A program made the translations under genes and the position numbers. Source: [Borrelia] tanukii (GTDB lineage Bacteria; Spirochaetota; Spirochaetia; Borreliales; Borreliaceae). Taken from it: a stretch of DNA of 64,000 nucleotides. Positions 32,920 through 35,507 of the stretch are shown in pieces. The stretch covers positions 806,001 through 870,000 of the forward strand of contig NZ_CP124038.1 in assembly GCF_030436345.1 (NCBI RefSeq). Direction: 5' to 3'. The notes beneath the pieces were generated by a model. The model worked only from the letters and a program-made list of their open reading frames with translations, was not told the origin of the DNA and searched no databases. Each line of letters starts with the position of its first letter. Position 1 is the first letter of the stretch.

Positions 32920-35507
32920 ATGGAAAAAAATGTTACCCCAATGATGAGGCAATACTTAGATATCAAAAAAAAATATAAAGATGCAATCATTTTTTTCAGA
33001 GTAGGAAGTTTTTATGAAATGTTTTTTGACGATGCAATTGAGGCAAGCAAGCTTCTTAATTTAACATTGACAAAAAGAGAAAATGTTCCAATGTGTGGAG
33101 TGCCTTACCATACTAGTAAGGAATATATAAGAAAATTAATTTTATTTGATAAAAAGGTTGCAATTTGTGAACAAGTGTCTAATTCTGCTCTTGGGGGCCT
33201 TTAGAAAGAGAGGTTGTTGAGGTAATAACCCCAGGTGTTATTATTGATGAAGATTTTTTAAATGATGATGTTAATAACTATTTAGTTGCTATTAGTGATT
33301 ATAAGAATTATTATTCGTTTTCTTATATAGATTTATCTACTTCTAGTCTTGGGGTGATGTTTTATGAGAATAGCTTTTTTGAAAAACTTAAAAGAGATCT
33401 TGAGAAATACTCTCCTAAAGAGATAATAGTTTCTGAAAACTTTTATTATGAATATTTAGAGAAGCTTAATCTTAATCGGTTTTTAATTAACAAAGTACCT
33501 GATTGGCACCTTAATAAGGATGTTGCAATAAAAACAATAAAGGAGCATTTTAACATACTTGGATTGAGTTCTCTTGGATTTGATGAGGAGAAGCCTTACT
33601 ACATTTCAATTTTTCTTATTATAAATCATATAAAAAATAATTTAAAAAATTTATTAAGTAATATTGATAAAATAGATATTAATAATGATTCTTCTTACAT
33701 GTTTCTTGATGATGTAACTCAAGTGAATCTTGAACTTGTAAAAAACAATAATGATTTTTCTTCTCAATACTCATTATATTCTGTGTTAAATGATTGCAAA
33801 ACTGCAATGGGAAAAAGACTTTTGCGGGAATTTATTTTAAATCCAATTTTAAATATTTCTGAGATTAATACTAGGCTAGATCATGTTGAATTTTTTTGTA
33901 AAAATATTAGCTTGACTATGACTTTAAGAGAAACTTTTATTAATATATGGGATATTGAGAGAATAATATCTAGAATTCAGATGAAAAGATACATTAAAAA
34001 AGATTTTTTATTTATTGAAAAAGCCCTTTCTGTATTTTTTTTGGTAAAAAAATTATTCGATAAGCATAATTTTGATTATTGGATTTTTGATAAGTTTGAA
34101 GAGGATAGTGTCTCTAAAGTTTATTTTTTGATAAAAAGTGCAATTTCAAGCTCATCTGATGAACTTATTAAAAGAGGTTATGATTTAAAGCTTGATAGTT
34201 TGAAAGATTTAAAGATTAATGCTAATAAATATATTGATGAATATCTTGAATCAGAGAGATTGCTTAGTAAGATCAATAATCTAAAGATTAGAAAAACTAA
34301 TAATAGAGGATTATTTTTTGAAGTTACAAAGAGTAATTATGCTCAAGTGCCATCTCATTTTATAGAAAGCCAAACTTTAAATTCTTCAAAAAGATATAAA
34401 ACAGAAAAACTTATTTCTCTTGAAGTGGATATTAATAATGCTGAAGACAATGTGGTTGCTTTTGAGCAGGAAATTTTTGATAAAATAGCATCAAATGTTG
34501 TTGAGCATAATAAAGTTCTTAAAAAGGTTGCAGAATTTTTTGCATATATTGATTTAGTTGTTAATTTTGGTTATTTGGCAAAAAAAAATGAATATAAAAG
34601 ACCTGTGTTGACGGGTAATAAAGAAATTTTTCTTGACAAGTCTCGTCATCCTGTTGTTGAGCACTATGTGAAGAATACTGAAATCTTTACTGAAAATTTT
34701 GTAAGGATTGATAAAGAAAGGTATTTTTGTTTAATTACTGGTCCTAATATGGCAGGTAAATCAACTTATTTGCGCCAGGTGGCTTTAATTACTCTAATGG
34801 CACATATAGGCTCTTTTGTGCCAGCTTCCAAGGCTTTAATAGGCATTACAGATAAAATTTTTTGCAGAATTGGAGCAAGTGACAATATTGCCAAAGGAGA
34901 ATCCACTTTTTTGGTTGAAATGAACGAAACGGCTAATATTTTAAGAAATGCAACAGAAAAAAGTTTAATAATTATGGATGAAGTTGGAAGAGGTACTAGC
35001 ACAAATGATGGGCTTGCTATTGCTTATTCTATTATAGAATATATTTTAGAGAATATTAAAGCTAGAAGTTTGTTTGCCACGCATTTTCATGAACTATCGG
35101 CTATTAATCATAAAGCTTTTATTAATCTTTCAATGAAAATTGAAAAGCAAGGCAATGATCTTGTTTTCTTAAGAGAAGTTGAAGAAAAACCATCTCTTAA
35201 TTCCTACGGGATTTATGTTGCTCGAATAGCAGGACTTCCTTTAAAAGTAGTGGATAGAGCTAATGTTATCTTAGAAAGTTTGCTCAGTCGAAAGGATGGC
35301 TCTTGTTTAGAATTTCTTCCTTATAGTTCTTCTGATAACCATGATAAAGAGGTCTTAAAAAATGATACTGATGTTCATGTTAAGTTAAATGAGTATTTGG
35401 AGTTAAAAAATTTTATTTCTAATATAGATATTAATAATATTACCCCTTTTCAATCAATTGAACTGCTAAATCAAATTGTTTTAAAAGTTGTTTCTCAGTC
35501 CAGTTAG
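32920..35507 (+). pseudogene. mutS: DNA mismatch repair protein MutS, frameshifted
   Basis: The first part (MEKNVTPMMRQYLDIKKKYKDAIIFFRVGSFYEMFFDDA) is the MutS mismatch-binding domain with the F-x-E motif. The frame hits a stop at 33202. From 33198 the next frame continues PLEREVVEVITPGVIIDEDFL, the natural sequel, and runs to 35507 with the lever, clamp and ATPase domains (TGPNMAGKST, IMDEVGRGTSTNDG, FATHFHEL). Restoring one base near the G5 run at 33193-33197 gives a full protein of 862 residues. As written the product would stop at 94 residues. It is either a true mutator allele or a sequencing error in a homopolymer. Confidence 0.88.

What the first reader, a model, noticed from the sequence alone, without database searches (positions are those of the whole stretch)
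33193..33204. mutS carries a single-base frameshift at a G run
The reading frame from 32920 stops at 33202 after 94 codons, while the neighbouring frame carries the rest of MutS from 33198 without any further damage. Adding one base at the G5 run (33193-33197) restores a protein of 862 residues. Everything downstream, including the ATPase motifs, is intact, so the change is recent or an artefact. A true loss would make a mutator strain and would matter for the G runs elsewhere in the window.
Basis: seen in the sequence. Interest (0 to 1): 0.7.

Follow-up and report, generated by a model that had tools for sequence, protein, structure and literature searches.

The report
Broken mismatch-repair gene in one spirochete
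In this genome of a Lyme-group spirochete the DNA mismatch-repair gene mutS is split by a one-base change of reading frame that no related species examined shares; it is either a very recent loss in one isolate or a leftover sequencing error, and the genome does not look like that of a long-standing mutator.

Summary
In a chromosome assigned here to Borreliella tanukii (by its plasmid contigs), mutS1 is cut after 94 codons by a one-base change of frame at a five-G run (33193-33197); all later MutS domains stay open in the next frame. mutS1 is uninterrupted in 35 of 35 other Borrelia/Borreliella species genomes, and a 99% identical intact 862-residue MutS lies on another chromosome-sized contig, so intact copies exist, probably within the species. 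mutL and mutS2 are open. In the window this genome has no long branch and the fewest private one-base indels of six genomes; longer runs, including a G9 in ftsH, sit in unbroken genes. Its transition bias is the highest of the branches compared, but close to that of one sister. So an old mutator lineage is very unlikely; a very recent one is not excluded. One more private frame break (tail of a glpD-like gene) turned up in 424 kb of chromosome. Genomes of this species were published from PacBio reads alone, so a residual error is possible: real recent loss 0.5, artefact 0.45. MutS1 is dispensable in B. burgdorferi (published). Side result: the mutS lesion published for B. recurrentis appears to lie in mutS2.

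The parts
32920..33204 (+). 5' piece of mutS1: 94 codons, most of MutS domain I, ended by TAG
33193..33197 (+). five-G run at which the reading frame changes
   Evidence: the 26-base stretch 33191-33216 is found exactly in this genome alone of 18 of the genus
33195..35507 (+). 3' piece of mutS1 in the -1 frame: MutS domains II to V including the ATPase, no internal stop
33354..35507 (+). longest ORF with a start codon (GTG) in the 3' piece, 717 aa, lacks domain I; re-initiation there is only a possibility
35488..36126 (+). downstream neighbour comF, overlaps the end of mutS, intact here

Best explanation
A real, very recent one-base frame loss in mutS1 of a single B. tanukii isolate, in nature or during culture. 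Shown: the frame break, its absence from the relatives examined, intact mutL and mutS2, and no sign of an old defect. Inferred: translation stops inside domain I, so neither piece alone could both recognise a mismatch and drive the ATPase step; MutL then gets no MutS1 signal, and replication errors (transitions and one-base slips above all) would go unrepaired. Because MutS1 is dispensable in B. burgdorferi, such a cell would survive, and the loss is too young to have marked the genome.
For: mutS1 open in 35 of 35 other Borreliaceae genomes and broken only here. A 99% identical intact MutS on a different chromosome-sized contig dates the break to after the split from that isolate. The consensus looks clean elsewhere: one frame break in the 64-kb window, none in nine further 20-kb stretches against two relatives, one in nine more against one relative; private one-base indels 3 against 5-14 in the five others. 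Frame breaks of similar density occur in relatives (three in 180 kb of G003, one in 180 kb of G011). mutS1 deletion is viable and infectious in B. burgdorferi (PMC5013056; PMC2779866).
Against: A single-base loss in a run, with everything else intact, is also what a residual PacBio consensus error looks like; the published genomes of this species came from PacBio reads alone (PMC11389397). Both private frame breaks found are one-base losses at G or C repeats. The one close copy found is intact. Mutators are uncommon in natural populations (recalled).
Confidence: 0.5

Rival explanations
1. Consensus error: the strain has an intact mutS1 and the frame break arose when PacBio reads were reduced to a consensus without short-read polishing.
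For: PMC11389397 sequenced 36 of 47 genomes by P6-C4 PacBio reads only, and none of its four B. tanukii isolates is among the 11 HiFi genomes. A P6-C4/Quiver assembly elsewhere kept a single-base homopolymer deletion that Illumina reads corrected, in one of the two strains checked (PMC5797582 passage). All relatives are intact.
Against: Longer and more error-prone runs agree with relatives, and private one-base indels are few. PMC11389397 states about 500 Mb of reads per isolate, that is deep coverage. That the present record comes from that project is itself an inference.
Confidence: 0.45
2. Recoding: the split gene still makes full-length MutS by a programmed frame shift or slippage at the run.
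For: The 3' piece is under the same constraint as intact copies (N/S 0.25 against 0.22-0.48), as would be expected if it were still translated.
Against: The site (T GGG GGC in the first frame) does not have the form X XXY YYZ of -1 slippery sites (recalled form), the downstream RNA is no more folded than shuffles (z 0.02), and relatives keep one open frame. Constraint is equally explained by youth.
Confidence: 0.03
3. An old mutS1 loss that made the whole lineage a mutator.
For: Transition/transversion of private coding changes is 6.6 here, the highest of the branches compared (6.2 for the G011 tip, 4.3 for the sister stem, 3.8 for the G015 tip), which is the direction a MutS defect would push.
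Against: Private coding substitutions 726, against 455 + 486 (stem) for G011 and 849 + 486 for G015; private one-base indels 3 against 5-14; no decay in the 3' piece; a 99% identical intact copy.
Confidence: 0.02

Closest known systems
MutS1 (BB0797) of Borrelia burgdorferi
   Same: Orthologous gene by family, chromosomal place and identity; laboratory loss is viable (PMC5013056, PMC2779866, passages)
   Different: There the loss was made in the laboratory; here it is in a deposited natural isolate, if real
Frameshifted mutS of Borrelia recurrentis (BRE_100; PMC2525819, PMC7617810, passages)
   Same: One-gene frameshift in a MutS-family gene of the same family of spirochetes
   Different: That lesion appears to be in mutS2: the genome taken for B. 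recurrentis (G026) has mutS1 open and mutS2 split; there it is shared by ancient and modern genomes
Natural mutS mutators of other bacteria (search listing only)
   Same: Loss of MutS function by a small lesion
   Different: No raised mutation rate is shown here

Membership tests
MutS1 (DNA mismatch repair protein MutS) | MutS domains I to V in order, best match MutS rather than MutS2 | tested here: met
   spread over two frames. 3' piece scores 715.5 bits over the cut-off of NF003810, but 582.6 against a cut-off of 641.7 for TIGR01070; the 5' piece alone is below both cut-offs
MutS1 (DNA mismatch repair protein MutS) | one uninterrupted reading frame | tested here: not met
Mutator strain (loss of mismatch repair) | MutS1 gene disrupted | tested here: met
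   in the record as given; not verified in reads
Mutator strain (loss of mismatch repair) | genome-wide excess of transitions and one-base indels | tested here: not met
   window alignment of six genomes: indels lowest of six, branch not long; transition bias highest but near one sister; a very recent loss would leave no mark
Mutator strain (loss of mismatch repair) | raised mutation rate in culture | not testable with these tools
   needs an experiment
Sequencing artefact | absent from reads of the same strain | not testable with these tools
   no read data held
Sequencing artefact | assembly with many frame breaks in conserved genes | tested here: not met
   two in 424 kb of chromosome; this does not exclude a lone error

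The most novel reading that the evidence does not exclude
The isolate behind this record, perhaps the B. tanukii type strain, is a natural, very young MutS1-null Lyme-group spirochete; as far as these searches reach it would be the first in mutS1 of this family, since the published B. recurrentis case appears to concern mutS2.
Probability: 0.45. Interest if true: 0.4.

Novelty: new member of a known kind. Interest (0 to 1): 0.25.

Why it matters
If real, the deposited genome of this species is that of a probable mutator, and changes seen in its laboratory descendants need care. If an error, the split mutS must not be read as gene loss. Either way, placing the B. recurrentis lesion in mutS2 bears on the published idea that its genome decays through lost mismatch repair, because its mutS1 seems intact.

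Tried and rejected
Recoding at the run: unlikely (no slippery heptamer of the usual form, RNA fold z 0.02). Old mutator lineage: contradicted, though the transition bias points weakly the other way. Error-riddled assembly: not seen; two private frame breaks in 424 kb.

Rows dropped: a 118-aa ORF near 16325 (only G014 differs) and rows near 16768 and 16900 (ORF that overlaps the tRNA gene), one row that matched a neighbouring paralogue at 65% identity and one that concerns the first 30 residues of a G011 gene. One search printed 17 other loci of the genus: 11 in the mutS sense and 6 minus-strand loci at the wrong end, which were not used for the run.

A second broken Borreliella mutS seems to exist on a contig of 6,829 bases (P0004, P0140), but it breaks further on and does not confirm this site. 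No paper on the break was found in searches; 'mutS' has no occurrence in the main text of the two B. tanukii genome papers; promoter-like matches at chance level.

Full report
What is there. The window is G000:C1:806001-870000 of a four-contig genome of 1,011,368 bases. The first 8 kb of its 26.7-kb contig match 80 plasmid records: three, all B. tanukii, at 99.1-99.3%, the other 77 below 95%. The first 8 kb of its 17.5-kb contig match B. tanukii plasmids at 97.2, 96.8 and 92.5%; the other listed records are at 82% or less. I take the species as Borreliella tanukii. That it is the type strain Hk501 is a guess: PMC11389397 names four isolates, and plasmids of three were listed here.

The frame from ATG 32920 ends at TAG 33202 after 94 codons. 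The neighbouring frame runs open to 35507. Pfam puts MutS domain I on the first piece and domains II to V on the second; NCBIfam scores the second piece as MutS (715.5 bits) well above MutS2 (154.1). Solved MutS structures match both pieces in order. The frame changes at a five-G run.

Relatives. With the 3' piece as query, mutS1 lies in an open frame of at least 864 residues in 35 of 35 other Borrelia/Borreliella species genomes, against 774 here. The 5' piece lies in frames of 869 or more in 21 of 21 other Borreliaceae searched, against 124 here. The search of the protein collection (8,000 best candidates scored) found P0123, 862 residues, 99% identical, on a contig of 911,100 bases, while this chromosome has 913,560. 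It differs at 5 of 770 and 1 of 93 compared residues. Its source is not shown; at that identity it is most likely another B. tanukii isolate. So intact copies exist. In 11 other loci of the genus printed in the mutS sense the run length at the site varies while the frame stays open.

Quality of the assembly. tblastn of ORFs of five relatives against the window showed one frame break in this genome, mutS. Nine further 20-kb stretches, compared with G011 and G003, showed none here (314 ORF comparisons), three places in G003 and one in G011. Nine more, compared with G011 alone (135 ORF comparisons), showed one here: near the end of a gene like glycerol-3-phosphate dehydrogenase (NCBIfam matches are below their cut-offs, so the name glpD is recalled), where 17 of 17 other genomes of the genus stay in one frame to the end. 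Two in 424 kb is no more than relatives show.

Mutator footprint. In an alignment of the window with five relatives, using columns where three outgroups agree, private coding substitutions were 726 here; the paths of the sister species were 455 + 486 (G011) and 849 + 486 (G015). Transition/transversion was 6.6 here, 6.2 on the G011 tip, 4.3 on the sister stem and 3.8 on the G015 tip: highest here, in the direction a defect would push, yet close to one sister. Private one-base indels were 3 here against 5 (G011), 7 (G015), 9 (G003), 7 (G002) and 14 (G014). Coding columns were taken from ORFs of 90 aa or more in G011. None of 68 A/T runs of eight or more has a private one-base length change. Runs of G9 in ftsH, G8 and G7 in the large ORF and in bamA, and C8 in a 260-aa ORF lie in genes without a frame break here. 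The 3' piece has 12 synonymous and 3 non-synonymous private codons (0.25; relatives 0.22-0.48); the 5' piece 1 and 2; other ORFs of 250 aa or more on the + strand 256 and 74 (0.29). Numbers for mutS are small. This speaks against an old mutator; it cannot exclude one that arose in recent passages.

Function if real. The first piece holds most of domain I, which bears the mismatch-contacting Phe-X-Glu motif (recalled; FYE is in P0001); the second holds the rest and the ATPase. Neither alone could join mismatch binding to ATP-driven signalling (inference). mutL (613 aa) and mutS2 (789 aa) have open frames. In B. burgdorferi a mutS1 deletion infected mice (5 of 6 at the low dose, 12 of 12 at the high dose), colonised ticks about like wild type and was about 40-fold more sensitive to hydrogen peroxide in buffer (PMC5013056, abstract and passages). 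PMC2779866 says that disruption of mutS1 or mutS2 did not affect infectivity or vlsE switching, although its table gives 66.7% for mutS1 mutants in six mice (passages); PMC9159922 repeats that mutS loss had no effect (passage). I saw no mutation-rate measurement of Borrelia mutS mutants (searches, listings; passages above).

Artefact or real. PMC11389397 (section 29 read; passages) made 36 of 47 genomes from P6-C4 PacBio reads only, about 500 Mb each; none of its four B. tanukii isolates is among the 11 HiFi genomes. That this record comes from that project is inferred from species and number of replicons. A P6-C4/Quiver assembly of another genus kept a homopolymer deletion in one of two strains checked (PMC5797582 passage). 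Against error stand the agreement of the long runs and the low count of private indels. I put real recent loss at 0.5 and error at 0.45.

A published parallel. PMC2525819 (passages) reports a frameshift in B. [quoted passage not shown] PMC7617810 (passages) finds it in two higher-coverage ancient genomes. G026, with a chromosome of 930,981 bases (that this is B. recurrentis A1 is recalled), is 99.5 and 99.3% identical to it in two pieces, has mutS1 open at 870 residues, and has mutS2 cut to 698 with a fragment holding stops. PMC5013056 names BB0797 MutS1 and BB0098 MutS2. So the published lesion appears to be in mutS2.

Noticed in passing
L206 (G026:C1 about 106385-108714) and G026:C1:863597-865888: In the genome taken for B. 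recurrentis, mutS2 is broken and mutS1 is open, so the published 'mutS' frameshift (BRE_100) seems to concern mutS2.
   Followed up: partly
L210:3968 (G000:C1 about 248968): A second private one-base frame break of this genome, near the end of a glycerol-3-phosphate dehydrogenase-like gene; 17 of 17 other genomes of the genus stay in frame.
   Followed up: partly
L126 about 15733 and 16161 (G014, comF next to mutS): comF of G014 changes frame twice relative to the other five genomes compared.
   Followed up: no
proteins P0004 and P0140 (both with a longest contig of 6,829 bases): Another Borreliella mutS, 94% identical, appears as a 113-aa and a 716-aa piece, broken further on than here; draft-contig error or second loss.
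   Followed up: no
window 19355-19363: A run of nine G early in ftsH, also nine in two of the five relatives and shorter in three, with no frame break found: a slippage-prone site in a core gene.
   Followed up: partly
window 33040-33055 (+) and 32952-32933 (-): Two weak terminator-like matches inside the 5' coding part of mutS, where shuffles give 0.0 on average; five and eight pairs with three G-C each.
   Followed up: no
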